From contig NZ_FOFD01000001.1 in assembly GCF_900110865.1 (NCBI RefSeq), positions 930,001 to 994,000 on the forward strand: a stretch of 64,000 nucleotides of DNA, read 5' to 3'. The translations under genes were made by a program, and so were the position numbers. The notes under the pieces were generated by a model. The model had not been told where the DNA came from, searched no databases, and was given only the letters and a program-made list of their open reading frames with translations. This DNA comes from Natrinema salaciae (GTDB lineage Archaea; Halobacteriota; Halobacteria; Halobacteriales; Natrialbaceae). The stretch's first letter is position 1. Every line of letters starts with the position of its first letter. Below, in pieces: positions 45,438-63,292 of the stretch.

Positions 45438-47123
45438 TCACTCTGATCCCTCTGAATTGTCCTCAGTTAGGACTGAATCGGCAGGCAGGTTCAACAGGTA
45501 AGCAGACTTCTTAATCAAGTAATTGCGGTGTGCCTGAATCGCTTCTGGAGACCAACCACCATAGTTTCCGCGAGCTACTCGCAGTGCTAAGTCAAAACTC
45601 GAACGCGGTTTACCCCGCCTCCCCTGATAGATAGCAGCTTTCTCATCGAATGGCTTCTGAGCTGCCTTTGCATTGAGATCGTACTGTAGAGGAATCAAAT
45701 TCCCAAGCGTGTTTCTCAGCTGACTTGCCTCCTCTCTACTGAAATTGTCTTCCCAGTAATCGTATTTTTCCATCGCAGAACCGTACGATTTGGGAAGCAC
45801 GTGTTCTATGTGCATTCCACCGCCTCTCTTTTTGATCTGCTCAACCTTCTGGGAGTCACTTAGACTGTATTCAATAGCAACCAGCAGGCTCTTGTGCCAC
45901 TTCTCATCTCCATATACATTATCAGAATACAGGCCGTCCCGAACCCTTTCCGGAATATTATCACGTTTTCTCTTACTCTCGATGTAGTCCTTGATCTCCT
46001 CCAAACTGGCCTCGTCACGAAGCAGAGTCAAGATCTTGATCGAGGGTATTTTGATTTTTTCGCTAGTATAATCTCCAATCCAGTAGGAATAATAAAACCC
46101 GATTAGCTCATCACGCAACTCGTCAAAGTAATCAACACCGTCCTTCTTAGCAGCAATAAGAATTGTTTTCCAATACAGAGTATGTGACAGATTTTCCAAG
46201 ATGAAGATCTCTTTGGAACCCGAGTTTTCGATCCCGTTATAGTTGTCCACGAAGCTCCGAATATCGTTGACAATTTCTTTAGGATCCTTTCCCTCAAACT
46301 CAGATTTTAGCTCCTGATATCTCGTTTCCTGTGCCTTAGACTGCTGGAGATACAGTCGGTACATCCCAAGAATGCTGTCTAGGGTATCATAATCATCATC
46401 GACCTTCGTAGTGATGTCCTGCCAAACCTCGATCACATCGTCCTTGTCTTCGTCATCCTTCAAATTGCTCAGCAGATAGCTCTTAGTGAGATCAGAGACC
46501 GTCAAATCTTTTCCACGAGTGTTGATAGTCTGGAAAAGCCTGACAGCATGTGCAAGATTATCGCTGATAATTCTAATTAGTTCGATATTCTGATCGACGA
46601 ACTCAAAGAAGTCGTTGAGATCTTCGTCTCTATCCCCGAACTTGACCTCCAGACAATCTATCAGGATTTCGGCAGCCTCGGTGTACCTGTTTTTCTCATC
46701 CAAGTCTATCGACTTGAGTACTGACTGTTCAAGATCAGTTTGCTTACTGGTCCTCAACCGCGGTTTCTCCAACGCCTGTTCATGGACTCTTCTCTGAACC
46801 CGTCTCTTGTTCCTATCGCTCAAGTAATCGTGGAAATGGTCGTTGAAAATCGCATAGAGAATTATTAGAGAGGTCATCCTCTGCTGTCCATCCAGTATAT
46901 CATAACGTGAATCACCGTCCTCCTTCACCAAAATGACAGAGCCGAGATAGTAGGGACTGTCTCGGTCCTCATTCCACGATTCATAGAGGTCATCAACTAA
47001 CTGCTCAATATGCGATCTCTCCCAGCTATACGGCCGCTGATACCGAGGAATTTGATACAAGTCATCCTCACCATCAAACAGATCCCGGCACTTCACCGGA
47101 TCCGGTTTGAAACTATGCTGCAT
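45438..47123 (-). CDS. GmrSD-type modification-dependent restriction enzyme (DUF262-DUF1524)
   Basis: A 561-residue single-chain protein. The N-terminal DUF262 domain shows YQIPRYQRPYSWERSHIEQL, YYLGSVILV and the nucleotide-binding DILDGQQRMTSLIIL; INTRGKDLTVSDLTKSYLL is also typical. The C-terminal DUF1524 nuclease contains an HNH-like HIEHVLPKSYG, RNTLGNLIPLQ and AKAAQKPFDEK. GmrSD-like enzymes cut modified (for example glucosylated) phage DNA using NTP. Its DNA is markedly AT-richer than the flanks. It is a lone leftward gene between two TFB starts, indicating a defence cargo insertion. It probably targets foreign DNA bearing base modifications, which is notable beside a DNA-modification island. 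Confidence 0.87.
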   Translation of the reverse strand: MQHSFKPDPVKCRDLFDGEDDLYQIPRYQRPYSWERSHIEQLVDDLYESWNEDRDSPYYLGSVILVKEDGDSRYDILDGQQRMTSLIILYAIFNDHFHDYLSDRNKRRVQRRVHEQALEKPRLRTSKQTDLEQSVLKSIDLDEKNRYTEAAEILIDCLEVKFGDRDEDLNDFFEFVDQNIELIRIISDNLAHAVRLFQTINTRGKDLTVSDLTKSYLLSNLKDDEDKDDVIEVWQDITTKVDDDYDTLDSILGMYRLYLQQSKAQETRYQELKSEFEGKDPKEIVNDIRSFVDNYNGIENSGSKEIFILENLSHTLYWKTILIAAKKDGVDYFDELRDELIGFYYSYWIGDYTSEKIKIPSIKILTLLRDEASLEEIKDYIESKRKRDNIPERVRDGLYSDNVYGDEKWHKSLLVAIEYSLSDSQKVEQIKKRGGGMHIEHVLPKSYGSAMEKYDYWEDNFSREEASQLRNTLGNLIPLQYDLNAKAAQKPFDEKAAIYQGRRGKPRSSFDLALRVARGNYGGWSPEAIQAHRNYLIKKSAYLLNLPADSVLTEDNSEGSE

Positions 47124-50067: not shown

Positions 50068-50529
50068 ATGTCGACGCTACTTATTCAATCTTGCTCAAAG
50101 TCTAAAAAACAGACAGATGAGCCCATCTCTGCTATGGAATTGTACTCGGGATACTTCTTCAAAATCATAAAAAAGTCGAGAAGAGAAGAGACGGTAAATT
50201 CAAACATTGATGTGGGAATTCTGTCTGCAAAATATGGATTTGTCAAGTCTGATGAAAAGATAACCGCTTATGATCGCCAGATGAACTCTGAACGGGCAAT
50301 GGAAATTGGATCAACAATGAGAGAAGAACTTCGAAATTACATATCACACGAGGGCTATGACCGAATTATCATCAATGCTGGAAAGGAATACCGGAAGGCG
50401 ATAAATGGATTCGATGATGGCCTGTCTGTTGACATATACGAGATTACTGGTGATGGCCTTGGGTTAAAAGGCCGATCGCTGAAAAGATTCTTGAGAGGAG
50501 ATGAATCCGGTATTATGAGGGTGAACTAA
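50068..50529 (+). CDS. DUF6884-like protein, partner of DpdA-like enzyme
   Basis: A 153-residue protein from ATG 50068 (MSTLLIQSCSKSKKQTDEPI). Conserved features include C-S-K-S-K near the N-terminus, MELYSGYFFKII, GILSAKYGFVKSDEKITAYD and a late strand YDRIIINAGKEYRKAI, the pattern of DUF6884 proteins. These often neighbour TGT-like DNA-modifying genes. Its stop overlaps the ATG of the DpdA-like gene (TAATG), so they are surely co-expressed. Biochemical role not established here; ATG 50017 gives a longer N-terminus. Low GC relative to the window. Confidence 0.72.
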   Translation: MSTLLIQSCSKSKKQTDEPISAMELYSGYFFKIIKKSRREETVNSNIDVGILSAKYGFVKSDEKITAYDRQMNSERAMEIGSTMREELRNYISHEGYDRIIINAGKEYRKAINGFDDGLSVDIYEITGDGLGLKGRSLKRFLRGDESGIMRVN

Positions 50530-51767
50530 TGTCCGAATCAGTTATATCATCTATCGATTTCGAGGTGACTTCGACGGCTGGAGATGCTCGAGCAGGGTCA
50601 TTATCAATCAGAGATACAGTAATTGAAACCCCTAATCTCTTCCCCGTGCTGAATTTCTACGGAGGAGGGACGATAAATAGCAACTACGGAGGCGGAATTC
50701 ATCGGACTGTCAAGGAATTCATGATCGGCCATGAGCGGATTAACGGCGGTGATTATTCCAAGTTCTTTGATGGAGTAATGACATCCGTTTCGTCACTGAC
50801 TGACTACAATATTACCAGAGAAAGGTATGATGATTATGTGTCACAGCCAATCAAAGAGCGTGATGTGTTTTCTCCCTTTTCTGGCATATTATTTATTGAT
50901 TCTGGGGGATTCAAATTCCTCAGCAGTGATGAGCTTGATGGGAGCAATTTCCAGATTGAAATAGATCAAGAGAAAGTTTATGAGATCCAGCAGAAGCTGG
51001 GTGCGGATATAATTGTCAATCTTGACCGACCGATTTCGCCTGACGATACGCATAACCAGCGTATCGAAAAAGCCCAGCAAACTGGAAAGAACATCGCGAA
51101 GTTCCTTGAACTTTCATCTGATTTTCGTGGGGCCCGATACCTAACACTTCACGGATACAACTATTCGATGATGGATGAATTTCTTACTGAAATTACTCGC
51201 TATACTAGCGCTGAAACGCTTCGATCAGCTTTTGATGGAATCGCCCTTGGAAGTCTTGTTCCGAAGAAGGATGATCGGAACGCGCTGATTGATGCCGTTA
51301 TTGACTGTCGTGCCGTTCTCGAAGATTGGGGATTTGAGGAATTACCGCTTCATGTTCTTGGAATCTCGAGCCGAGCAATTCCACTTCTCGTCGCACTCGG
51401 AGTAGATACCTTCGACTCGTCAACATACCTTCAAACTGCAATAAACGGAGGGTATTGTACGTCGCTGATGGAGACAGTAGACGTCTCCGAAGCAAATCCT
51501 AAACAGTGTGACTGTCCAGTCTGTTCGTCAGAATACTTGAGAGAGTGGATGCTAGGAGATGCACCATACCAAAAAGATATGCTGGGAGCAGTTGCGATGC
51601 ATAACTTAATAATTCAGAAACGTTCGATCTTCGAAATACGCGACCGAGTCAGACGCGGTGAGACGGAACCACTAATTGAGTACATCGAATCAACCGTGGC
51701 ACAAGATAAGCCAACGAGAGAACACGCGCATCGGGTTGTCAACCATTCGCTTGGAGGGTACTTCTAA
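50529..51767 (+). CDS. dpdA: DpdA-like 7-deazaguanine DNA base-exchange enzyme (TGT family)
   Basis: A 412-residue TGT-fold protein. Signature pieces in order: FIDSGGF (123-128) like the DSGGFQ of tRNA-guanine transglycosylases, IVNLDRPIS, GIALGSLVPKK (active-site loop), GVDTFDSSTY with likely nucleophile Asp296, and the zinc site C327-x-C329-x2-C332 with His358 (CDCPVC, AMHN). It lacks the PUA domain of archaeal tRNA enzymes, and its context is DNA-processing genes, as for DpdA proteins that place 7-deazaguanines in DNA. Substrate would be preQ0 made by the host archaeosine pathway; no synthesis genes are in the window. It overlaps both neighbours by one base (TAATG). Confidence 0.82.
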   Translation: MSESVISSIDFEVTSTAGDARAGSLSIRDTVIETPNLFPVLNFYGGGTINSNYGGGIHRTVKEFMIGHERINGGDYSKFFDGVMTSVSSLTDYNITRERYDDYVSQPIKERDVFSPFSGILFIDSGGFKFLSSDELDGSNFQIEIDQEKVYEIQQKLGADIIVNLDRPISPDDTHNQRIEKAQQTGKNIAKFLELSSDFRGARYLTLHGYNYSMMDEFLTEITRYTSAETLRSAFDGIALGSLVPKKDDRNALIDAVIDCRAVLEDWGFEELPLHVLGISSRAIPLLVALGVDTFDSSTYLQTAINGGYCTSLMETVDVSEANPKQCDCPVCSSEYLREWMLGDAPYQKDMLGAVAMHNLIIQKRSIFEIRDRVRRGETEPLIEYIESTVAQDKPTREHAHRVVNHSLGGYF

Positions 51768-53332
51768 TGAGAAAAAATCCAAAAGTCAACGAAGTAAACG
51801 AATTTCTTGAGATTGCCAGCGATTTCGAAGATCCACTCGAGGTAATCCGAGAATCACTATCGAACGCATACGACGCAAACGCTTCGAACGTCGAAATTGA
51901 AATCAGAAGCCGTGAGATGGGGTCTGATATCATTATCGATGACGACGGCGACGGGATGAATCAGCGCGACCTCGAGTCATTTTTCGACTTAGGGAATTCT
52001 CGAAAGACAGATTCGATTGGGTACAAGGGCCACGGTACGAAAATCTTCTACAAGAGTGATCGCATCGTCGTCAATACTGCTTCTGATGAGGCGAACCTCC
52101 GTGCAGAGATGGACAAGCCTTGGGAGAAGCTTAACCAGAGAGAGCTTCCGCAGTATGAGGTAACCGAAACTCCAGTTAGGAAAGGGAACACTGGTACGAG
52201 GATTCGAATTCGAAACTTCCGATCCGGACAAGGCTTCGATCCAGAATCACTCACCTATAATAAGATTGAACACTACCTGAAGTGGAAAACGATTGCTGGA
52301 TCGACGGCATATCTGTTCGATGACGAAGATCGGGAGATGGACATCACCGTAAAGTTGGGTGATGAAATCGACGATTCCAGGCCAAAGCTCGAAACGACAA
52401 CTCGGTTCAAATTCCCCGAGGAACAACTCGAGCCAGATCGGTCGTCCGAGTTCCCAGCCGAACGGATGTGCAAGCACTACAAACCAACTGAAATTGAAGT
52501 AGAATACGAGGGTGGGACAACGACGTTACAGATCGTTGGTATGGTCGGTGGGAAAGCCGCCCGAAACGAGCTACCGACCTACGGTAAACACTCCGCACAG
52601 TTCGGTGTCTGGCTAGCGAAAGATCACATCAAGGTTGAGCGATTGAACGAGGCAATTTCGCATGACAACGAGTTCCTCCACTTCTTCTTCGTTGTCAACT
52701 GCCAATACATTGAACTCTCAGCAAACCGAGAGTCTATCCGGAATAAATCCAGTCCTGTGTACCAACGGCTTACAGAGGAAGCCGAATATTACCTCTCCAA
52801 GGTCGCTCAGGATCCATGGTTCAAGGAGTATCTCGAGACCCGGCGGGATGCCGAAATCAAGCGTCGTGCCCGAAACCGCCGAAGCTCGTTGAAAGACCGA
52901 CGAGAACGCATCGAATCAGGGCAAGCGCTTGAGCCGACCAACCGGACGGAAGTCTTGCTCACACTCGAGCGTGCCAACAGCAAATCAGATGCTTCGACGA
53001 TCACTGTCGAGGATTTCGACCCCAACGCCGACGTTCACGCAATAGTGAGACAAGGTGGTAAACTCAGAAACGCAGCTGTACATCATTCGCTGACGGATCA
53101 CTTCGAAGATGATCTTACATTCGAGGAAGTCGATCTCATCATCTGCTGGGAGTATGGCGATCCCACGACGCTGCGTGAGTACGAACGAACGGGCTATCTT
53201 GGTGGCGAGGTTGAGTTCCAGCTCGAGAATGATGGGCTCGTCTACGAAGACGATGGACAGTCTTTCATCGAAATTCTCTGCCTGAATCAAGAATCCGATA
53301 AAGTGACCCAGCAAGCGGTCATCAGCGACTAA
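51767..53332 (+). CDS. GHKL-type ATPase (HSP90/MORC-like) of the DNA-modification operon
   Basis: A 521-residue protein. Bergerat-fold motifs are clear: E29-x3-N33-x2-D36 (ESLSNAYDA), D-x-G-x-G at 58-63 (DDDGDG) and GYKGHG at 85-90. The next region (GNTGTRIRIRNFRSGQGF) and YGKHSAQFGVWLAKDHIKVE fit a S5-like transducer as in MORC-like or topoisomerase-like ATPases. A basic helical segment (EIKRRARNRRSSLKDRRERI) could bind DNA, and the C-terminus is an alpha/beta domain (VDLIICWEYGD) that may be nuclease-like. ATP-driven dimer closing on DNA is the family mechanism. It is coupled by TAATG to the DpdA-like gene. Confidence 0.8.
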   Translation: MRKNPKVNEVNEFLEIASDFEDPLEVIRESLSNAYDANASNVEIEIRSREMGSDIIIDDDGDGMNQRDLESFFDLGNSRKTDSIGYKGHGTKIFYKSDRIVVNTASDEANLRAEMDKPWEKLNQRELPQYEVTETPVRKGNTGTRIRIRNFRSGQGFDPESLTYNKIEHYLKWKTIAGSTAYLFDDEDREMDITVKLGDEIDDSRPKLETTTRFKFPEEQLEPDRSSEFPAERMCKHYKPTEIEVEYEGGTTTLQIVGMVGGKAARNELPTYGKHSAQFGVWLAKDHIKVERLNEAISHDNEFLHFFFVVNCQYIELSANRESIRNKSSPVYQRLTEEAEYYLSKVAQDPWFKEYLETRRDAEIKRRARNRRSSLKDRRERIESGQALEPTNRTEVLLTLERANSKSDASTITVEDFDPNADVHAIVRQGGKLRNAAVHHSLTDHFEDDLTFEEVDLIICWEYGDPTTLREYERTGYLGGEVEFQLENDGLVYEDDGQSFIEILCLNQESDKVTQQAVISD

Positions 53333-53339
53333 GTCGATA

Positions 53340-53440
53340 GGTGAGGTACCAAGTGCGGTGGTTGGGTTGCCTTCGTAGCGGACGTGATTGTCGTAGAGGT
53401 AACCGAACAGGTTGACCAGATCACTCGCACCGTCGAAATT
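53340..53440 (-). pseudogene. Possible end of a DDE-type transposase (minus strand)
   Basis: The minus strand reads NFDGASDLVNLFGYLYDNHV then GNPTTALGTSPIDL, resembling the last residues of some integrase-core transposases (Y-x-N-H near ALG-x-x-P). It is very short and could be chance. It lies directly after the ATPase gene. Confidence 0.3.
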
Positions 53441-53491
53441 ACATTCATATAATAACAAATAATATTCGATATTTTCTAAGACAATCTTCGC

Positions 53492-53785
53492 GTGAGAACA
53501 CACCGACGGAACGCGCGTGTCCTCGCGGCGTTTCTGCACCAATGGTGCCGCGGTCGCCCGCTGGAGCGGGCTGACTGCGGCCCCTGGTACGACTGGCCGC
53601 TCGAACTCCTCGCCTGCGACTACGAGCGCGAAACCTGGGGAAATCGCTCGCTCATCGAAGTCTGGTTCGGAATCTTCGAATACCGAACCAGGCGCTTTTG
53701 GCACCGATTTCCCCACGATAGCACAACTGAATCAACTAGATCGTGGCTCACAGCTTTCGCAACCCACCACAATACGACGGTCTAA
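53492..53785 (+). pseudogene. C-terminal remnant of IS6-like transposase
   Basis: The frame contains GPWYDWPLELLACDYERETW, GNRSLIEVWFGIFEYRTRRF and FWHRFPHDSTTESTRSWLTA, the C-terminal part of an IS6-type DDE transposase (the Glu in NRSLIE is the last catalytic residue). The N-terminal catalytic aspartates are absent. It is debris between the DpdA-like operon and the first helicase gene. Confidence 0.7.
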
Positions 53786-53844
53786 CCTTGACATCCTCCA
53801 GGAATTACCAGAATCTATTAGTGAGGTCGTAGCAACGAAAGGGT

Positions 53845-56800
53845 ATGGATTATGCTGACAGACATACGGATTTTTCTCGATTCGATGCATCTCTTCAAAC
53901 CCTTCTGCAAGGCATCGTTTTCAATAGGCAACGGTGGGGGGACGAGGACGATGCTGCATTGGTGACGGACGCGATCAAATATCACCAGCGTCCCGTTAAG
54001 CGCCCGGACCGTCGACCCTACACCGGGGGAGACGAGTATATCCGTGAGGTCTTGGAGGAAATTCTCGGCTTTGACGAAACTATTCCGTTTCAGGAACGCT
54101 GTTGGGAGCGGCTGAACGAGATGCGGACTGCCCGGACGGAAGAAACTTCATCACAGGCTGCTATTCTGTCAGCGCCGACCGGGTTCGGGAAGACAGAGGG
54201 ATTCGCCGGCCCCATTTTCCACGATTTAGCGACAAACCAGGGCCGAGGCTTCGGTAAAATCGTCATCGTCTATCCTCGTAACGCACTACTTGAGGATCAA
54301 CTTGAACGGTTCCTTGTGACGATGGAAGAAATGCGGTCACAGTACGGGTCGGACATCTCTATTGGTATTTACAATGGTGACGTCCCACAGGACAACAGCG
54401 GCATCAAATACTCATCGCTGGTGGATTGGGGTGAATTCCGGATCGCACAATGGACTGGAGGAGATGAGCCGGTCCCGCTCGAATTCACTTATGACGATGC
54501 TGATAAGACATATACGCTCGAAGCGCAATCGCTCGAAGGGCCTACTTTTGATGAATCTCAAATTAAACTCTCTCGGAAGTCGGTCCGCGGTGGCAACGGC
54601 GGGAATCCTCCTGATATCCTCTTAACCACCATCAATTCGCTTGAAAATTTTGCGGTCAAGCCTAATTACGATATTATCGACGCATATCGGACGTTTGTCT
54701 TCGACGAGGTGCATCTGTACCGCGGCACGTACGGAGCCCACGCATCGAATGTCATTCGCAATACCAAGCGGTCGATCGAAGAGCGTGTCGATGACGAGAC
54801 GGGGTTACTGTTCGTCGGGTCAAGTGCGACAATTGACAAACCGAAATCGTTCGGGAGCGACATTTTCGATATCGATCGCGGCGATATCTCGGTTATCGGA
54901 ACGGATTCAGGAGATATGCAGGATTCCGATGACACGGAGCACTTCCACTTTGTCACGTCGAATGAGGACGTCGCTACAAGTTCCACGTTTATTCAGCAGA
55001 TTCTGTTGTTTGCGCACGGTCTTCTCGAAGAACGGAACGGCCGTCCACGAAAGAAGGCGCTTGCATTCATCGATAGTGTCAGCCAAGTAAACCAACGCCA
55101 CTTTCAAATCCGCGATTTTGAAAACGCTTCACGATGGCAGTACCACGATGAAGACGAGGATGATTGGGCGGCTGTCGCCACTGAAACGCCATACCTCAAC
55201 TCCGATCCAGTCGGGACAACTCCCGGTCACGAGTTAATTGATGACGACCTCACGACGCAACCCACATCCGCCGACCTGCGTCTTCGGGCAGACGAATTCG
55301 GCGATACTGATCTAATTTTGAGTACGTCACTGTTGGAGGTGGGAATTGATATACCTGCTATCAAGGTCATTAGCCAGTACCGAGCCCCGTGGGAGATGTC
55401 GCAGTTCGTGCAGCGAATTGGCCGAGCTTCACGGAAGGAAGGGAACGATGCTCACTTCCTTATCGTCCTGGGAGATGATGCCGGTGATCGAAGTCTCTTC
55501 CACCGGGCTGATACCTTCCTTGACCCAGAAATTACCACGCCACTGAACGTCGACAACGAGATTCTGGAATGGATCCATGACCAATTGTACGAGGCATTCG
55601 AAACCGTCTATCGGATCCGGAGTGCGGCAAATCAACCATCACTAAATCGGCAACGAGAACTGTTTATTGAACACTTCCTCCAAAATTCCTCCGAAGAATC
55701 TTTCGAGGACTTTGCTAACTTTATTTTTGGACCGTCTAGTGAACTCTCAACATTGCTCCGACAGAAAGTTGTTGCTCCGAATTCCCTGCAGGATCTTGAA
55801 TCAGTTCAACAAACATATAATGTGCTCGACCATATCCAACAAGACGCGCTATTGTCCAATGTAGCCTCGCTGGTGAGGGAACCAGCCCCTCGCGTAACTC
55901 TCCAAACAGGAAGCCTGAACGGTCTGTCTCAGAGAGTCAACAGTGCCATTCAGAGGACTATCTCAGAGGCAGAGACAGTCATGGATAAGGCCACTCCTCA
56001 GAATCAGTCTGCGGAGGATACAGTTGAAGACGTTCGTGAGAAGCTCGGCCGAGCATCGGACATCTTGGAGGACGAGCAGTACGATCGTCGCGACCGATAC
56101 GACCAGCTTGATGACCTGTTCAACGAAATCAACAGCGAATTAGTCGGCGTCGCCGATAACCTCGAGGGGGTTACCAAGTCCTTTCCCTTCGACTTGGGTC
56201 TGGAAGAAGTCATCGCTGCCGCGCAGGAAGCACGCACCATTCGTAGCGACGACGACATCGAAGAGAAACGCCAGCGATGGCAGCGGATCTATTTCCTGAA
56301 ACGGTCGCTACAAGAGTACTACTGTTTCGAGAATCAACGATTCGAAGACGGAAGGGTATATGGCCACCTCATGGTGCCCGCAATCAAAGCTCTTCTACGG
56401 GCAATCTATTTCTACCATCGCGCGGGTAACCTCGGTAATCAGCGTGCAGAGCTTGAGCCGCCACACTTCGTTCCCACGTCGTATTTCGGCGAAGCTGGCG
56501 AGACATTTTCGGTAGTCCCGGAAGACGAAGGGAGCGAAATTGGGGAGGACGACAGTGTCGATGCACTCTATGAGAACCGATTCAAAAGCGATGACGACGA
56601 TGAAGATGAAGTTGAGCAAGGGGACGTCCCGCTGACGAAGCTCTTTTTCGAGTATGCTCCCTATATGTCAAAGTACCTCTCTGACGGGTCTCTGCAGATG
56701 TTCAATCCTCCTGTTGAGGAGGCACCCATTGATGCTACAGAAGACTACTACTTCGATGTCTCCGGCCTCTCTACTGAACCCGGGGAAGAAGTAATTACAC

Positions 56801-58059
56801 CAAGTACGCTGCCTGTCAAAAGCGTCACCGACCAATCTGGTGATCAGGCTCGTGCTATCGTTTGGTACTGTGAGGAGTCTCTCTATGTTGGGCGCGATAC
56901 GTGGGACGCCGGTCCGGAGGGATCGGATACGATGGCTTATGGGCAACTCCATTCGAATCCACAAGTCGGAACCTCGTTTGAGCCTGAACGTGAGGTTACA
57001 GACGAATTAGGGGTGGAGTATATCTCTGCAAACGTTCGGCTGGACAGTGTCGACCTCACTATTACCCCAGCATATCCGATGGGAGACCCGACTGGCGATG
57101 GTACGACGCCGTTCCGGACCGATCGCGACAATCAACAAGAGGTCGACATAGGCTTCAAGCAGCCACTTGGGTTCACGCTCAACACCCGGGGAGCTATCTG
57201 GAACTTGGACGAGTTCATTGACATTCTCGTTGGCGACGAGGTCTTTGAGCGCGAATTCGCACGTCATAATCCGGACGCCGACATTGAAGAAGTCGCCCAC
57301 TATACTGCAGCCCATTTCTTGCTCGAGATTATCTCTGACATCAGTGGCGTTAACCAGGCACAGCTCCTCTATGGGGTCGACATCGAGAATCACCGAGTCG
57401 CTGTCTTCGAGCACGCTGAAGGTGGGCAAGGCATCGTCGACCTCTTTGAGCAGGTACGCACCCGAACGGATCACGAACGCATGTTGCGTGCCATCAACCG
57501 GGTAGCGGCGAATCCCCAGCTAATCAACGGCTCACTCTGGGCTGACGAGGACTTTGTCCAGGCTGTTCAAGACGATGATCAGGACCAGATTGATCAGTAT
57601 GTTCGAGACAGAGTTGTGGTCGCGACGGACAGAATTGTAGACGATGTCAAAGAACAAGTTCACCACACTGTCGACCAGCTTGATGAGTTTGCCGACGTGA
57701 CCGGTGTGCCTCAGGACGTCGCTTATGAGATACGCTACATGGCTGCCCAAATGCAGTTCGAGGATGGAAAACACGACCCAATCGATACATTGGTGGCTAA
57801 CACGCCGGACAGCGTTCTGGCAGAAGAACTCCGGAATCTCATAGTGGACCCTGATGTCGACGACTGCGTGGAGAACCTCCACCTCGCGTACAGTATTGTC
57901 GAAGATCAGAGCGCTGTGTTGAGTAACGTCGTGCTTGAGCGACTTCACGATTACGTGACCGAACAGACGAACAATGACGACTGGGATGAGGAAGTCTTAG
58001 GCCGTGAGGCGCTTCCGGGGGCAATCATCGATGGTTCGAACATTTTCCATTCACTCTGA
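53845..58059 (+). CDS. DEAD/DEAH helicase with DUF1998-like region (module 1, DpdJ/DrmA-like)
   Basis: A 1404-residue helicase. Walker A SAPTGFGKTE (about 109-118), DEVH box (FVFDEVHLYRG, about 286), LLEVGIDIP and QRIGRASRKEG (motif VI, about 522). Middle part is helical; the C-terminal region contains HYTAAHFLLEIISDISGVNQ and FEHAEGGQGIVDLFE (about 1189), resembling DUF1998 regions of DISARM DrmA and Dpd-type helicases. Cys/His clusters found in the paralogue at 59204 are gone (WTGGD in place of CWCG; CEES in place of CPEC). The last 29 bases overlap the phospholipase-D gene. Probably an ATP-driven DNA translocase for defence. Confidence 0.85.
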   Translation: MDYADRHTDFSRFDASLQTLLQGIVFNRQRWGDEDDAALVTDAIKYHQRPVKRPDRRPYTGGDEYIREVLEEILGFDETIPFQERCWERLNEMRTARTEETSSQAAILSAPTGFGKTEGFAGPIFHDLATNQGRGFGKIVIVYPRNALLEDQLERFLVTMEEMRSQYGSDISIGIYNGDVPQDNSGIKYSSLVDWGEFRIAQWTGGDEPVPLEFTYDDADKTYTLEAQSLEGPTFDESQIKLSRKSVRGGNGGNPPDILLTTINSLENFAVKPNYDIIDAYRTFVFDEVHLYRGTYGAHASNVIRNTKRSIEERVDDETGLLFVGSSATIDKPKSFGSDIFDIDRGDISVIGTDSGDMQDSDDTEHFHFVTSNEDVATSSTFIQQILLFAHGLLEERNGRPRKKALAFIDSVSQVNQRHFQIRDFENASRWQYHDEDEDDWAAVATETPYLNSDPVGTTPGHELIDDDLTTQPTSADLRLRADEFGDTDLILSTSLLEVGIDIPAIKVISQYRAPWEMSQFVQRIGRASRKEGNDAHFLIVLGDDAGDRSLFHRADTFLDPEITTPLNVDNEILEWIHDQLYEAFETVYRIRSAANQPSLNRQRELFIEHFLQNSSEESFEDFANFIFGPSSELSTLLRQKVVAPNSLQDLESVQQTYNVLDHIQQDALLSNVASLVREPAPRVTLQTGSLNGLSQRVNSAIQRTISEAETVMDKATPQNQSAEDTVEDVREKLGRASDILEDEQYDRRDRYDQLDDLFNEINSELVGVADNLEGVTKSFPFDLGLEEVIAAAQEARTIRSDDDIEEKRQRWQRIYFLKRSLQEYYCFENQRFEDGRVYGHLMVPAIKALLRAIYFYHRAGNLGNQRAELEPPHFVPTSYFGEAGETFSVVPEDEGSEIGEDDSVDALYENRFKSDDDDEDEVEQGDVPLTKLFFEYAPYMSKYLSDGSLQMFNPPVEEAPIDATEDYYFDVSGLSTEPGEEVITPSTLPVKSVTDQSGDQARAIVWYCEESLYVGRDTWDAGPEGSDTMAYGQLHSNPQVGTSFEPEREVTDELGVEYISANVRLDSVDLTITPAYPMGDPTGDGTTPFRTDRDNQQEVDIGFKQPLGFTLNTRGAIWNLDEFIDILVGDEVFEREFARHNPDADIEEVAHYTAAHFLLEIISDISGVNQAQLLYGVDIENHRVAVFEHAEGGQGIVDLFEQVRTRTDHERMLRAINRVAANPQLINGSLWADEDFVQAVQDDDQDQIDQYVRDRVVVATDRIVDDVKEQVHHTVDQLDEFADVTGVPQDVAYEIRYMAAQMQFEDGKHDPIDTLVANTPDSVLAEELRNLIVDPDVDDCVENLHLAYSIVEDQSAVLSNVVLERLHDYVTEQTNNDDWDEEVLGREALPGAIIDGSNIFHSL

Positions 58060-58501
58060 AGAGATTGCCAAATTCCTCGGGACGGCCTTCCTCAACGCGG
58101 ATCAAATGGCCGTCGTGTCCCCATGGGTCAGTGATATCACCGTTCGATTCCCTGACTCTGACCGCATCTCGGACCAGAGGCTTCGGTTTTCCGAAACTGT
58201 TCAGATACTTGATGTCGATCTCGAGGTGTTCGTGGACCCAAACCAGAATCATCACAACAGACGGAAACCGACCTCGCTTCTCCCGCGGATTAGTGACCAC
58301 GTGTCGATTCACGAAGTTGACGGGCTGCATGCGAAAGCAATCGTGACTGACAGGGTACTCTATCAAGGGTCAGCAAACATGACGTATAACGGACTGAACG
58401 TCAATATCGAGTTGTGCGATATTCGAGAAAACGAGTATGGGGATGTCGACCAGTTTCTTGAACATCAGCTGGGAATTTCTCCGGATCGGCAGTCCATCTG
58501 A
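58031..58501 (+). CDS. Phospholipase-D-like nuclease (module 1, DpdK/DrmC-like)
   Basis: A 156-residue PLD-fold protein starting MVRTFSIHSEEIAKFLGTAF. The HKD motif is visible: LHAKAIVTDRVLYQGSANMT (H-x-K-x4-D then G-S-x-N). One motif per chain means a dimer builds the active site. VVSPWVSDITVRFPD matches the N-terminal core of the paralogue at 58780. It overlaps the helicase by 29 bases, the same as module 2. Associated phospholipase D-like proteins in DISARM and Dpd loci act with their helicase; here it likely cleaves or binds DNA. Confidence 0.83.
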   Translation: MVRTFSIHSEEIAKFLGTAFLNADQMAVVSPWVSDITVRFPDSDRISDQRLRFSETVQILDVDLEVFVDPNQNHHNRRKPTSLLPRISDHVSIHEVDGLHAKAIVTDRVLYQGSANMTYNGLNVNIELCDIRENEYGDVDQFLEHQLGISPDRQSI

Positions 58502-58516
58502 GGTCGTGAAACGACC
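58502..58516 (+). terminator. Hairpin just after module 1
   Basis: GGTCGT and ACGACC separated by GAA, starting one base after the stop of the phospholipase-D gene. Archaeal terminators usually need a T-rich tail, present weakly downstream (ATCATATTTTAGATT), so this is only a probable terminator. Confidence 0.4.
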
Positions 58517-58779
58517 CTCGGGAATAATCATATTTTAGATTGAGTCTACAATGAAACGATCATCTCCTCGCGGACACTCGACTGGGAAGGGACCGCTGGG
58601 ACGTCCTACTAAATCTCAACAACAAAGGGTTTCAACAGACCCATCTGACTCAAATCGCTAACGGCTATTAACAACATCTTGTATGAATTTCTCCATATAT
58701 GATATAATCTCACGGGGACGTAGCGGAGTAGACGTGCTTCACTCCCACCCACAAAAGGACAAGGAGCGCTGCTTTCTGT
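58517..58779. other. Gap between convergent modules
   Basis: Roughly 260 AT-richer bases between the two phospholipase-D gene ends. No gene is supported. ATTTTAGATT near 58530 and TTCTGTTTAAAAATC near 58778 are AT-rich runs usable for termination from either side. Confidence 0.35.
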
Positions 58780-59232
58780 TTAAAAATCAGAACAGTAGAT
58801 GTCAAGCTCTGCCTCGAGATACGCTTCGATACTCTCGTATTCGTTCTCGATGACTTCACAGAGTTCGCGGTTGAGAGAGAAGCCACCTCGAGTGATGTTT
58901 GCAGAACCCAGGTACACGTATTCGTCACAGATCACGGCTTTCGCATGAAGATCGTCGAGTTCGATGAGAGTAACGTGGTCTGGCAGTCTGCGACGAAGAT
59001 AGTCGTTGTGCGATTCGCCTTCCTTGACGATGATCATCACTTCCGTCTCTGGCAGCTGGCGGAGAGCCTCGGATAGACGAAGCGTACGCTCTTCGAGAGC
59101 GTTCGTGACCGGGAACTTGAGCTCAACGTCACTCATCCACGGCGAAACGATCGCGACCCGTTGGGCATGGACGAGCGTGTACCCGATGAAATACGCGAGG
59201 CTGTTAGAAGTCAATGAAAACGCTTGTACCAT
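58780..59232 (-). CDS. Phospholipase-D-like nuclease (module 2)
   Basis: A 150-residue protein starting MVQAFSLTSNSLAYFIGYTL, homologous to the module 1 protein along its whole length (VAIVSPWMSDVELKFP; LHAKAVICDEYVYLGSANIT with H-x-K-x4-D). Its start overlaps the end of the module 2 helicase by 29 bases, exactly as in module 1. The HKD motif is intact. It presumably acts with the adjacent helicase. The C-terminus (LEAELDIYCSDF) differs from module 1 in length. Confidence 0.83.
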   Translation of the reverse strand: MVQAFSLTSNSLAYFIGYTLVHAQRVAIVSPWMSDVELKFPVTNALEERTLRLSEALRQLPETEVMIIVKEGESHNDYLRRRLPDHVTLIELDDLHAKAVICDEYVYLGSANITRGGFSLNRELCEVIENEYESIEAYLEAELDIYCSDF

Positions 59233-62200
59233 CTATCTCACCTGCAGGCGGAAGCTCTCGATCAAACATGGCGCTGGTCGCGTTTTCAGAAGGGACTGTA
59301 GTAAGGATGAAATCACGGAGTGCCTCGAGCACCACATAGCTTAACGAGTCCTTCTGATCGTGTCCGGATATACATTCCGAGAGATGGAGGTTCTCGACGC
59401 AGCCGTCGATATCCGGCGAATAAAACATAGTCTCGACGCGGTCGACGTCATCGATATCGACCTCGAGGGCCGATACTTCGTCTTCCGGGAATTCGTCTGC
59501 ACCGCCGACCTGCTCACGTGCAACGACGTGTTTGGTTCGGATTGCTTCGGCTAGAGTCACTCCCTCGTCAGCTTCGAACTGACGACAGCGATCGACGGTC
59601 GAAATGATTTCCTCCTCGACTCGGTCGACAACGTCGTCGTAGAGGACCTCGAGATGAGATTCGATTAGGCCCCGTATCTGATCGTCCGCGGCATTTTCTG
59701 CGATAACCTCGTCGACGAAATCCTCATCGGCCCATAGCCGTTCGGCGATCACCTGCTCGTTGTACGTGAGCCGCGTAATCGCCTCGAGGACGGAACCGGG
59801 ATCAGTCCGTAGTTCTTCGTATACCAGGTCCACGATCCCCTGTCCACCTTCTGAGCGTTCGAAGACGTAGACCTCGCCTTTCTCCTCGTCGAAGCCATAG
59901 AGCAACATCGTGGGATTGACGCTGCTCACGTCTGCAGTCAGCTGTAAGTAGAAGTGAGCTGCCGTGTGATAGAGCAAGTGCTGGTAGTCTACTTCGTCGA
60001 GGTCCTTGTACTGGGCCACTTCAGCCCGAAAACCGTCTTCGATACTCTCGAGGAATGGTTCGATATCGAAGATGAGACCTCTCGTTTCGAGCTGGAAACC
60101 CAGTGGTGTGTCCGGACTCGAGATTTCGCGCTGGAAGCGTTCTTTCGAACTGTCAAAATGATAGCCGATGTCTGGACCCATTGGCTTCGCAGGTTTGATG
60201 TCAAGCGTTACTCCAGCGAGTTCGATAGCGGCCGTGAAGTCTGCGAGCGTCAACGTGCCCGTAGACTCCTCTGCAACCCGTTCCGTGACTCGCGTGTTGA
60301 CGTTCGCGGTCGAGTGGATTTTGCCGTATTCACGGTCGTCGTGGCGGAGACACACATCGAGGTCAGTGAGGATCTGGAGACACTCGGGGCAGTACCGGAC
60401 GATGTTGAGCGCCCGATCGCCCGTGAGATCAGTGATTTCGCTCGTGCGTATCGTATCCGGAACGAGCATTCCATCCCGCTCTTCTCCCGAGATGTCTTTC
60501 TTGAACTCGAATTCCACGCCGTCTTCAGTCACCCTCGTGTGTGGCAAGAACGCTTGCATCACACCCGAGTCTGACTGGTACTCGCTTCTGTACGGAGCGT
60601 ACGTGCTTACAAGCTGGTCAATTGACTCTTCAGTTCCTTCATGGTCGTTCTCTCCACGGAAGACGGTAACGTATCGTCCAGTATCTCCGTAATAGTTGGG
60701 TGGGACGTACCAGACTTCTCTGGCGAGACGATCGCCGTCGACTCGCAGATAACGGTCGACGTAGTACGCTGCCCTCAGCAGATGTTTGACCGCGAACACG
60801 CTGAGATAGGGTGTATAGTAGTCGACGTATTCTTCGAGTTCGCTTAGAGCGGATTGCAGGTAATATACGCGTCGCTGAGTGCGGTAGAATTTAGCCAGCC
60901 TATCATCGGACGAGAGTGCGTCGAGTTGATCGACCGCTTGCTGAACCGCCTGGAGCTCATCCATGTTCACCGTTGGCACTGACCGGTCAGCCGCAGTGTT
61001 AGCAGCGGTCCGGAGGTGGATGAGATCGCCAGTACAACGGAAGACGTCCGCAAGAAGGACGGAGAAGTGCTCTACCCGCTCCGAAGGGGATCCTTCGGCC
61101 GACGAAGCTCTCTGACGGATGTTCTCGAGTGTGTCTCGTAGTTCGCGAGCGTTCTCTTCGTAGTTGGATTCTCCCGCTTCGCGAAGCACCGATTCATACC
61201 CCCCGGTCTGACCCAGGAAGGCCTTTACCAGCGTCAGAATTTCCTCCTGAACGTCATCGAGGTGTGAGTCGATGGCGCTCGATCCTCGGACGATTTCACC
61301 ACCGTCGACGTCGAAGTAGCCTTCGATGTCTTCAAACTCGTCCTCGAGCTCTCGAACGTGTCTCGCGAGATCCGCACGGACCTCTTGAACGATCTCTTTC
61401 GATAACAGTGATTCACTCGTGACCTCAATGTCGAACTCTTCTTCGAAGAAAGCACTCGGCTCATCGATCATGTGGTAGACGCGATCGAAGCCGAGGTCGT
61501 CGACGAGATACCCATCGAGAAACGCAAGATGGCTCTCACGCGATGTGATGTACTGATGGCGGTTTTCCCTGACCTCTGAGGCACGGTTGTAGTACTTTCG
61601 GAGACACTTGTGGATCCACTCGACGACGCTGTTGTCCGTTTTCAAAGGAGTTCGAATCTCTGATCCGAGGAACCGATCGGCCCGATAGAACATGTTAGCG
61701 TCTCCGGTGAGATTCGAGAGGAAGACGACGATGTGTGCATCCATTCCCGGTTCTCTCGCTGCTCGACCCGCTCGCTGGAGAAACGACGAAAGGTTCCATG
61801 GCGTTCGATACTGGGTAACGATTTTGATCTCTCCGACGTCGATTCCAACCTCGAGGAACGATGTTGACAGGAGGACATCGCTCTTCGATGCCGACTCAGA
61901 GTCAAATCCTGCATCCGAGTAGACTGGCATGAGCGACAATGGTTCGTCGATGAACGCGTGATCCATCTGATCGGCAAGCCACGGCCAGTCGTCGGTCGCC
62001 TCACGATCAGTGTGATACCGCCATAGTTCGCGCTCTCTATCGGCATCTTCGAGCTGGATCCGTTTTTGATTCACCTGCGAGATACTGTCGATGAACCCCA
62101 GGAGCTTGCTGCGATCACCGTCTTCGTCCTCGAGAAGGCTGTGACCCAGCATCATGTGCTGCTGGATGGACATTGGAGCCGCACCGGGTCCATCGCTATC

Positions 62201-63292
62201 TGCGAGCAGGAAGTAGTAGTGTTCGTAGTCGTCGTGATCCTCATCGAAGTCAGACGCGGGCGGTTCTTTCGTTTCGATGTTGTCAGATGAAACGTCAAAA
62301 AGACGTTTTCCGAACCTATTCGCATTATCGATTGTTGCACTCGATCCTAACCACAGGATCGGATCGTCAGATGCGTCGTTTACGTTCTTGATTACGTTGG
62401 CTGCATGCGATCCCCGTAGCTGGGTGTAGAGGTGAACCTCGTCAAGAACGATCGTGTCGATCAGGTCGACCAGCGGGTAATTCGGTTTGAGAGCGAAGCC
62501 CTCGAGAGACTCGAGGGTCGTGAGGATAATATTCGGCTGGTTGTTCGAGACGAGTTCCTTTCGAGCGAGAACCAGATCCCGGTCGGTGAACGTGTGCTCT
62601 TCAGGGTGTTGCTCACACCGCAGTTCGTAGGACCTGGATGAGCCGTGGAATTCCAATGCGTTCGATCCGTCCCCACACCAGCAGTTCGTCAGTCTGAACC
62701 GAGGAGGAACCTGTGATTGATCGAAGAAGCGCCCATTGCCGGAAACATCTCCGAGTTCGTATGGCTGTCGGCCGACGTAGACGCCTGCTGAGAGTTCGTC
62801 ACCGGTTTTTTCACGGATGGTATGGATGTGCTCGAGGATACGCCCGAGTTGGTCCTGGAGTAGTGCTCGGCTTGGATAGACAATCGCAACGGACTCTTGG
62901 CGTCCGTCGCGAAGAAGTTGATAGAGTGGTCCGAGGAACGCTTCGGTCTTCCCGAATCCAGTGGGAGCCGAGAAGATCGCGGCTTTGGTCCGACCATCCT
63001 CTCGTTGGGCACGCTCAAGAGTGTCGACCGTTTGCCAGCTGTTGATCTGGAAGTCTAGTGGATCGAAGCCGAAAATATCGATGATATCGTTGACGAACTG
63101 GTTGTCGCCGTCATACGGTGTCGTTTGACGACGCTTCTGTTGCTGCGAGGCGTATTTCAATGCACTGGTGAGGAACGCTGCATCATCCTGTTCAGTGTCG
63201 AACAGTTGGCGATTATGGAGGAAAGACTGGATGAGCGGCCTGACCTCTGGCTTTAGACGATTTGGATCAGTGTTCCGATCGATATGTTTCAT
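59204..63292 (-). CDS. DEAD/DEAH helicase with DUF1998-like region (module 2)
   Basis: A 1362-residue paralogue of the module 1 helicase. Walker A SAPTGFGKTE (about 108-117), DEVH (IVLDEVHLYTQ, about 283), LEVGIDVG and QRAGRAAREPG (about 507). The C-terminal part has HTAAHFYLQLTADVSSVNPT and FERSEGGQGIVDL. Unlike module 1 it keeps two Cys/His sets: CWCGDG (near 200) with CEQH later, and CPEC (near 967) with CLRH, likely zinc ribbons. Flanks and length are otherwise parallel. Both copies may form separate complexes with their own phospholipase-D partner, or one may regulate the other. Confidence 0.85.
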   Translation of the reverse strand: MKHIDRNTDPNRLKPEVRPLIQSFLHNRQLFDTEQDDAAFLTSALKYASQQQKRRQTTPYDGDNQFVNDIIDIFGFDPLDFQINSWQTVDTLERAQREDGRTKAAIFSAPTGFGKTEAFLGPLYQLLRDGRQESVAIVYPSRALLQDQLGRILEHIHTIREKTGDELSAGVYVGRQPYELGDVSGNGRFFDQSQVPPRFRLTNCWCGDGSNALEFHGSSRSYELRCEQHPEEHTFTDRDLVLARKELVSNNQPNIILTTLESLEGFALKPNYPLVDLIDTIVLDEVHLYTQLRGSHAANVIKNVNDASDDPILWLGSSATIDNANRFGKRLFDVSSDNIETKEPPASDFDEDHDDYEHYYFLLADSDGPGAAPMSIQQHMMLGHSLLEDEDGDRSKLLGFIDSISQVNQKRIQLEDADRERELWRYHTDREATDDWPWLADQMDHAFIDEPLSLMPVYSDAGFDSESASKSDVLLSTSFLEVGIDVGEIKIVTQYRTPWNLSSFLQRAGRAAREPGMDAHIVVFLSNLTGDANMFYRADRFLGSEIRTPLKTDNSVVEWIHKCLRKYYNRASEVRENRHQYITSRESHLAFLDGYLVDDLGFDRVYHMIDEPSAFFEEEFDIEVTSESLLSKEIVQEVRADLARHVRELEDEFEDIEGYFDVDGGEIVRGSSAIDSHLDDVQEEILTLVKAFLGQTGGYESVLREAGESNYEENARELRDTLENIRQRASSAEGSPSERVEHFSVLLADVFRCTGDLIHLRTAANTAADRSVPTVNMDELQAVQQAVDQLDALSSDDRLAKFYRTQRRVYYLQSALSELEEYVDYYTPYLSVFAVKHLLRAAYYVDRYLRVDGDRLAREVWYVPPNYYGDTGRYVTVFRGENDHEGTEESIDQLVSTYAPYRSEYQSDSGVMQAFLPHTRVTEDGVEFEFKKDISGEERDGMLVPDTIRTSEITDLTGDRALNIVRYCPECLQILTDLDVCLRHDDREYGKIHSTANVNTRVTERVAEESTGTLTLADFTAAIELAGVTLDIKPAKPMGPDIGYHFDSSKERFQREISSPDTPLGFQLETRGLIFDIEPFLESIEDGFRAEVAQYKDLDEVDYQHLLYHTAAHFYLQLTADVSSVNPTMLLYGFDEEKGEVYVFERSEGGQGIVDLVYEELRTDPGSVLEAITRLTYNEQVIAERLWADEDFVDEVIAENAADDQIRGLIESHLEVLYDDVVDRVEEEIISTVDRCRQFEADEGVTLAEAIRTKHVVAREQVGGADEFPEDEVSALEVDIDDVDRVETMFYSPDIDGCVENLHLSECISGHDQKDSLSYVVLEALRDFILTTVPSENATSAMFDRELPPAGEIDGTSVFIDF

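What the first reader, a model, noticed from the sequence alone, without database searches (positions are those of the whole stretch)
50068..63292. Apparent archaeal DNA 7-deazaguanine modification/defence island with two helicase-PLD modules
Seen: a DUF6884-like protein, a TGT-fold enzyme with IDSGGF, a DTFD nucleophile region and CDCPVC zinc site, and a GHKL ATPase are joined by one-base start/stop overlaps. Near them lie two helicase plus phospholipase-D pairs. Known: bacterial dpd clusters combine DpdA, a DpdJ-type helicase and a DpdK-type PLD protein; DISARM also pairs a DUF1998 helicase with a PLD protein. Inference: this is an archaeal variant in which a DpdA-like enzyme modifies DNA and the helicase/PLD complexes act on unmodified DNA. 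The GHKL ATPase in place of the usual extra dpd genes, and the doubling of the restriction-like part, may define a new subtype.
Basis: partly seen in the sequence, partly recalled or inferred. Interest (0 to 1): 0.88.

Follow-up and report, generated by a model that had tools for sequence, protein, structure and literature searches.

The report
Haloarchaeal DNA-base-swapping defence island (BRIGADE)
A salt-loving archaeon carries a gene island that probably replaces some guanines in its own DNA with a modified base and destroys DNA lacking that mark; this kind of system was named BRIGADE in a 2025 preprint, but the make-up of its marking machinery is described in more detail here.

Summary
The seven genes are real and at the stated coordinates. 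They are part of an island that runs about 24 kb past the window: a second base-exchange enzyme with an archaeosine-synthase-like domain, a DUF1998 (YprA/ARMADA-like) helicase and its module. The core (DUF6884, TGT, GHKL) recurs as abutting genes in 44 of 44 intact loci and in 43 of 391 haloarchaeal genomes (one copy degenerate). It co-occurs almost exclusively with the second TGT (37 of 38 genomes) and the Dpd-branch helicases (28 of 29). In 15 loci genes for the precursor preQ0 lie alongside. It is not canonical Dpd: the DpdA, DpdJ and DpdK curated cut-offs all fail. It fits BRIGADE Type I, predicted for haloarchaea in a 2025 preprint, so the proposed new subtype is not new. Not mentioned in that preprint's main text (its supplement was not readable): the paired TGTs, each with a YaaA/ArcS-fold partner; the TGT-ArcS fusion; and the GHKL protein as a MORC-like ATPase whose nuclease-like tail lost its ExK site. 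The modified base itself is unproven.

The parts
50068..50529 (+). DUF6884 protein (153 aa), YaaA/DpdC/ArcS-fold; predicted to convert the nitrile of DNA-bound preQ0
   Evidence: Pfam DUF6884 7e-15; PADLOC DpdC 5e-7, 17/17 family members match DpdC; AlphaFold model pLDDT 92.7, best PDB matches AF0587 Z 10.6 (rmsd 3.3, 122 aligned) and YaaA Z 9.8 (rmsd 3.8, 150 aligned), next row 6.7
50529..51767 (+). core TGT (412 aa), predicted DNA guanine transglycosylase; both catalytic Asp and the CxCxxC/H zinc site intact, no PUA hit
   Evidence: Pfam TGT 3e-29; conserved D124, D166, D293, C/C/C/H in essentially all of 44 members; own clade, 100/100
51767..53332 (+). GHKL ATPase (521 aa), MORC/MutL-like clamp ATPase with a C-terminal PD-(D/E)xK-like domain lacking ExK
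   Evidence: AlphaFold pLDDT 80.9, VIA-align best MORC3/MORC2 Z 19-20 (rmsd 3.6, about 300 aligned) over residues 1-360; ExK present in bacterial kin, absent in the haloarchaeal members shown
53845..58059 (+). HelA, Dpd-branch-like YprA helicase (1404 aa), no DUF1998 cysteines
   Evidence: PADLOC DpdJ 7e-52, NCBIfam DpdJ 149 bits; no CxxC
58031..58501 (+). PLDa, single-HKD phospholipase-D-family nuclease, 29-nt overlap with HelA
   Evidence: NCBIfam DpdK 57 bits; HAKAIVTDRVLYQGSAN motif
58780..59232 (-). PLDb, single-HKD phospholipase-D-family nuclease, 29-nt overlap with HelB
   Evidence: NCBIfam DpdK 53 bits; HAKAVICDEYVYLGSAN motif; 38% identical to PLDa
59204..63292 (-). HelB, Dpd-branch-like YprA helicase (1362 aa)
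   Evidence: NCBIfam DpdJ 138 bits; 32.5% identical to HelA over its full length; 28 of 29 genomes with a relative also carry the core

Best explanation
The locus is a BRIGADE-type modification-restriction island. Modification: host-made preQ0 (in some relatives made by in-island FolE/QueD/QueE/QueC) is exchanged for guanine in the cell's DNA by two TGT-family enzymes, the core TGT in the window and a TGT-ArcS fusion about 24 kb downstream. Their paired YaaA/ArcS-fold domains (the separate DUF6884 protein and the fused DUF5591 domain) then convert the nitrile, giving an amide (dADG) or an archaeosine-like product. The MORC-like GHKL ATPase, encoded with the core TGT, works as an ATP-driven DNA clamp that loads or licenses the modification enzymes and no longer cuts. 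Restriction: YprA-family helicases (the two DpdJ-like ones here and an ARMADA-like one with its STAND/AAA-type module downstream) translocate on DNA lacking the mark, and the PLD nucleases encoded in overlapping frames cut it. Shown: gene content, linkage, co-occurrence, catalytic residues, predicted folds. Inferred: DNA as substrate, the product base, the clamp role, and cutting of unmodified DNA.
For: The triad abuts in 44/44 intact loci. Core carriers number 43/391 genomes in 26/86 genera. Of genomes with the second TGT 37/38, with HelA/B 28/29 and with ATP973 26/30 also have the core; Fisher p about 1e-44, 1e-30 and 1e-25, uncorrected for phylogeny. Modules sit upstream or downstream in both orientations, so linkage survives rearrangement. 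queC and queE lie in 15 loci, queD in 13, folE in 5 (chance about 2e-13 if a genome has two queC copies). Both TGT families keep the catalytic Asp pair and zinc ligands and fall outside tRNA TgtA (98/99; AU for core+tgtA p=0.04). The genome has a separate tgtA and ArcS for tRNA. The ArcS motif PCX3KPYX2SX2H (defined from memory, seen in the host's own ArcS) is in 33/36 second TGTs, with DUF5591 at 82 bits. DpdC (17/17), DpdJ and DpdK are the best known matches, or among them, for the other parts.
Against: No nucleoside data. The core TGT scores closest to arcTGT models, and all curated Dpd cut-offs fail. Tree support for the placement is moderate, with long branches. In 10 of 15 genomes the in-island queC is the only queC, so it need not be a dedicated copy. 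12 of 45 loci have the second TGT but neither helicase module within reach, so the restriction partner is variable or absent. Co-occurrence tests ignore shared ancestry.
Confidence: 0.72

Rival explanations
1. The TGTs modify RNA (tRNA or another structured RNA) and merely travel within a defence island; the helicase/PLD modules act on their own.
For: The core TGT's best curated models are arcTGT (113 bits); the second TGT carries an ArcS motif and ArcS acts on tRNA (PMC11298593).
Against: No PUA hit in either TGT; the host keeps separate tgtA and ArcS; own clade outside tgtA; near-exclusive co-occurrence with nuclease-helicase modules; base-pocket Gln of tRNA TGTs is His in 98% of core and all fusion proteins, as in phage 9g DpdA.
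Confidence: 0.12
2. The modification marks invading DNA rather than protecting self, so the mark is the target of modification-dependent nucleases of the island (for example the GmrSD-like DUF262/DUF1524 genes nearby).
For: DUF262/DUF1524 proteins in 14 loci, directly downstream of GHKL in several, and one at window 45438-47123; GmrSD-like GrwAB restricts phages with 7-deazaguanine DNA (PMC12137116).
Against: The bacterial Dpd precedent is protective (PMC6884629, citing the original work); no evidence of target selection; DUF262 genes are common in defence islands.
Confidence: 0.06
3. The island is a patchwork: DUF6884-TGT-GHKL with TGT-ArcS is one system, and the helicase/PLD and YprA modules are independent defence systems co-located in a hotspot.
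For: 12 loci have the second TGT but no helicase module within 20 kb, 5 have the core alone; modules vary in order and strand; CRISPR, GIY-YIG-like and DUF262 genes also cluster there.
Against: Genome-wide, the helicases occur without the core in 1 of 29 genomes and ATP973 in 4 of 30, more exclusive than expected for hotspot neighbours.
Confidence: 0.1

Closest known systems
BRIGADE Type I (Bell et al. 2025 preprint, PMC12458937)
   Same: Restricted to halophilic archaea; two kinds of YprA helicase, one ARMADA-like with DUF1998 and one DpdJ-like without it; PLD nuclease without 4-helix bundle; predicted 7-deazaguanine cluster.
   Different: This locus has two Dpd-branch helicase/PLD pairs plus the ARMADA-like helicase. 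The preprint's main text does not mention TGT, DpdA, GHKL or MutL; its supplement could not be read here. The core also occurs without any YprA module nearby.
Bacterial Dpd (DpdA-K)
   Same: TGT-family enzyme, YaaA-fold DpdC-like protein, helicase plus single-HKD PLD pair resembling DpdJ/DpdK.
   Different: TGT is not DpdA (20 vs cut-off 200 bits), no DpdB or DpdD-I found, GHKL ATPase present, a second TGT fused to an ArcS-like domain; DpdJ 149/138 vs 800, DpdK 57/53 vs 100 bits.
Prokaryotic MORC/paraMORC restriction systems and GHKL-Shedu (PMC2292703, PMC12137116)
   Same: GHKL ATPase next to SF2 helicases and nucleases, including HKD domains; GHKL fused to a PD-(D/E)xK-like domain in the bacterial kin.
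   Different: Haloarchaeal members have lost the ExK residues and are fixed in an operon with a TGT rather than a methyltransferase.
BREX-related capture (BRC) systems with TGT (PMC12839542)
   Same: A TGT proposed to mark DNA inside a composite defence locus.
   Different: BRC has PglZ, DUF6079 (BrxC-like), DUF4007, HerA and GNAT; none was hit among the 14 island proteins scanned.
Archaeal tRNA archaeosine pathway (TgtA, ArcS)
   Same: Same two enzyme folds and catalytic residues; ArcS-type motif in the second TGT.
   Different: No PUA hit, separate clades, and the host retains its own TgtA and ArcS elsewhere.

Membership tests
BRIGADE Type I | One ARMADA-like YprA helicase and one Dpd-like YprA helicase (by profile affinity and domain content) | tested here: met
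   P0013 best DruE/SngC with MZB (DUF1998) and nine CxxC; P0004/P0007 best DpdJ with no DUF1998 cysteines
BRIGADE Type I | Placement of the helicases in the published YprA tree | not tested
   Reference sequences were not retrieved
BRIGADE Type I | PLD or PD-(D/E)xK nuclease without 4-helix bundle | tested here: met
   Two 150-156 aa single-HKD proteins with no N-terminal extension
BRIGADE Type I | 7-deazaguanine biosynthetic cluster | tested here: met
   TGT, DpdC-like DUF6884 and TGT-ArcS in the island; preQ0 genes in 15 sister loci; in this genome the strong QueC hit is on another contig
BRIGADE Type I | Halophilic archaeal host | tested here: met
   Same genus code as genomes whose loci match Natrinema salsiterrestre and N. 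mahii
Bacterial Dpd | DpdA (NF041059, cut-off 200 bits) | tested here: not met
   P0002 20.4 bits; P0008 not listed; haloarchaeal plasmid DpdA scores 275-280
Bacterial Dpd | DpdC | tested here: inconclusive
   17/17 DUF6884 members match PADLOC DpdC models weakly, best 6e-8; YaaA fold
Bacterial Dpd | DpdJ and DpdK equivalogs | tested here: not met
   149/138 bits vs 800 and 57/53 bits vs 100, although best known matches
Bacterial Dpd | DpdB and DpdD-I | tested here: not met
   No supported match among the 14 proteins; DpdH 3e-5 on P0010 was not reproduced by homologues
tRNA TgtA (archaeosine TGT) | TIGR00432 cut-off 350 bits and PUA domain | tested here: not met
   112.6 bits, no PUA hit; the true tgtA lies elsewhere
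ArcS | DUF5591 with PCX3KPYX2SX2H motif (P0008) | tested here: met
   DUF5591 82 bits; motif in 33/36; motif definition recalled, seen in host ArcS
ArcS | Curated ArcS cut-off 440 bits and PUA | tested here: not met
   118.8 bits, no PUA hit
DISARM | DrmA equivalog and DrmMI/MII methyltransferase | tested here: not met
   DrmA models score far below cut-offs; no methyltransferase hit among the 14 scanned proteins
GHKL-Shedu / paraMORC nuclease | Intact PD-(D/E)xK catalytic residues | tested here: not met
   E-x-K replaced in the haloarchaeal rows shown, kept in nearly all bacterial rows

The most novel reading that the evidence does not exclude
The DUF6884-TGT-MORC core plus the TGT-ArcS fusion is a portable archaeal DNA-marking unit, broader than BRIGADE, which combines with exchangeable restriction modules (YprA/PLD, nuclease-helicase, GmrSD-like, GIY-YIG). 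It writes an archaeosine-type base (dG+ or a lysine adduct) into cellular DNA. A pair of unlike TGTs, each with its own nitrile-converting domain, and a nuclease-dead MORC-like clamp replace DpdA/B/C.
Probability: 0.35. Interest if true: 0.82.

Novelty: new member of a known kind. Interest (0 to 1): 0.62.

Why it matters
In the library searched, no report was found of a 7-deazaguanine base in the chromosomal DNA of an archaeon; known cases are bacterial genomes and viruses. If this island works as inferred, haloarchaea mark their own DNA with a tRNA-type hypermodified base. That makes it testable, in genetically tractable hosts, whether archaeosine chemistry was moved from tRNA to DNA by losing the PUA domain and fusing TGT to ArcS. 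It also gives a concrete role to test for a MORC-like ATPase that lost its nuclease site.

Tried and rejected
Viral contigs searched with the core TGT gave nothing; phage records gave only marginal TGT hits. The Aeromonas TGT hit H3 looks like an ordinary chromosomal tgt, dismissed. Weak DpdH similarity of P0010 (3e-5) was not reproduced by three diverged homologues. Bacterial relatives of the GHKL protein (about 30% identity) are not next to a TGT or DUF6884, so the operon was not found outside haloarchaea; some sit near DNA methyltransferases. x230, x296 and x302 have no family. In the structural comparison of the GHKL model, only residues 1-360 were effectively tested. The idea that in-island queC is always an extra copy was tested and failed: it is the sole copy in 10 of 15 genomes. 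The DpdA histidine 196 (PMC6884629) is present in both TGT families but also in archaeal TgtA, so it does not discriminate. Two first-choice papers on bacterial Dpd are not held.
Full report
What is there. The window is G000:C1:930001-994000 of a haloarchaeon with the same genus code as the genomes matching Natrinema salsiterrestre and N. mahii. G+C drops to 0.44-0.55 across the island, from up to 0.69 elsewhere in the window. The island does not stop at 63292. Downstream, outside the window, lie a 230-aa protein, a 973-aa STAND/AAA-like ATPase, 296- and 302-aa unknowns, a 1575-aa helicase with an MZB (DUF1998) domain, a 1527-aa nuclease-helicase-like protein, and a 665-aa second TGT at C1:1015308-1017302.

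Conservation. The GHKL protein was found in 43 of 391 haloarchaeal genomes from 26 of 86 genera, a patchy distribution; one copy (G039) is degenerate. Reading about 40 kb around the others plus two plasmid loci and this one, every intact locus (44 of 44) has DUF6884, TGT and GHKL in that order, same strand and practically abutting. Orthologues of the second TGT occur in 38 genomes, 37 of which have the core. HelA/HelB relatives occur in 29, 28 with the core. The 973-aa ATPase occurs in 30, 26 with the core. The modules lie up- or downstream in both orientations, so the linkage has survived reshuffling. These tests are not corrected for phylogeny. Unbiased clustering of neighbours brought out preQ0 biosynthesis genes in the loci: queC 15, queE 15, queD 13, folE 5. 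In 10 of those 15 genomes the in-island queC is the only one. In this genome the strong QueC match is on another contig.

The base-exchange enzymes. Both TGT families keep the general-acid Asp, the base-binding Asp, the nucleophile Asp and the zinc ligands in essentially all members. Canonical archaeal TgtA forms its own clade (98/99). The core TGT forms another (100/100), and with the fusion TGT and a short plasmid TGT makes a set separated from TgtA and DpdA (SH-aLRT 99 without the longest branches). Joining core TGT to TgtA or to DpdA is weakly disfavoured (AU p 0.040 and 0.045), and long branches make this moderate evidence. A base-pocket Gln invariant in the tRNA TGTs examined is His in 98% of core and all fusion TGTs; phage 9g DpdA also has His there, while haloarchaeal DpdA has Gln. 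Neither TGT has a PUA hit. The host keeps its own tRNA TgtA and ArcS.

The converting domains. The DUF6884 protein matches DpdC models in 17 of 17 family members. Its predicted structure (pLDDT 92.7) is closest to AF0587 (Z 10.6) and YaaA (Z 9.8), well above the next row at 6.7. AF0587 is also what the fusion's C-terminal domain matches by sequence. That domain is DUF5591 (82 bits) and carries the ArcS motif in 33 of 36. So each TGT travels with one YaaA/ArcS-fold domain, one separate and one fused. Whether the product is the amide (as for DpdC), a lysine adduct or archaeosine (as for ArcS with RaSEA, PMC11298593) is open.

The GHKL protein. Its first 360 residues fold like MORC3/MORC2, MutL and topoisomerase VI-B (Z about 18-20). 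Bacterial relatives at about 30% identity are not linked to TGTs. Their C-terminal segment reads GID...E[FL]K, a PD-(D/E)xK pattern, while the haloarchaeal members shown have lost the E and K. GHKL-nuclease fusions are known as paraMORC3/GHKL-Shedu, and MORC-type ATPases with helicases and HKD nucleases were described in 2008 (PMC12137116, PMC2292703). The inference that the haloarchaeal protein is a nuclease-dead clamp serving the modification enzymes rests on this and is untested.

Restriction side. HelA and HelB are closest to DpdJ and lack DUF1998 cysteines; the PLDs are closest to DpdK. HelA and HelB share 32.5% identity, so they are old relatives rather than a recent duplication. The downstream 1575-aa helicase is closest to Druantia DruE and has DUF1998. 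This combination matches the published definition of BRIGADE Type I, reported only from halophilic archaea.

Verdict. The functional reading is well supported by comparative genomics but has no chemical proof. The claim of a new subtype fails against PMC12458937. The composition of the modification core (paired unlike TGTs, ArcS fusion, disarmed MORC-like ATPase) and its occurrence with other restriction partners are the parts that may be new; the preprint's supplement could not be read, so priority cannot be settled here.

Noticed in passing
L009 8381-10585 and 11992-15076; L010 8814-14872; L011 863-6857 and 11992-15076: Other haloarchaeal plasmids carry a genuine DpdA (275-280 bits in L009 and L010), in L010/L011 apparently fused to a YaaA/DpdC-like C-terminus, near a 344-aa TGT, a 300-aa unknown and a BrxD-like ATPase; L011 also has queC, folE, queE and queD nearby. 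A second, distinct archaeal 7-deazaguanine system.
   Followed up: partly
window 45438-47123 (-): DUF262/DUF1524 (GmrSD-like) protein upstream of the core; 14 loci have a protein of this type (829 aa), directly downstream of GHKL in loci such as G028, G370 and G340.
   Followed up: partly
G082, G086, G335, G143 and others, 1-4 kb after GHKL: A 197-aa protein resembling GIY-YIG nucleases lies on the opposite strand after the core in many of 13 loci; possible alternative effector.
   Followed up: no
G033, G268, G357, G015, G009, G354, G378, G295, G260: Proteins resembling type I-B CRISPR-Cas components lie 2-20 kb from the core in several genomes.
   Followed up: no
L008 7378-9192 (CP031298.1, Natrinema thermotolerans plasmid): Core broken: DUF6884 and the first 94 residues of the TGT (97% identical) end next to an IS1595 transposase.
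   Followed up: no
G039:C3:176607-177441: Degenerate GHKL copy with an internal stop and no TGT or DUF6884 found beside it.
   Followed up: no
L229, L237, L200: Bacterial GHKL-PD-(D/E)xK relatives sit beside apparent C5 or N-type DNA methyltransferases in some genomes, suggesting a restriction-modification role.
   Followed up: partly
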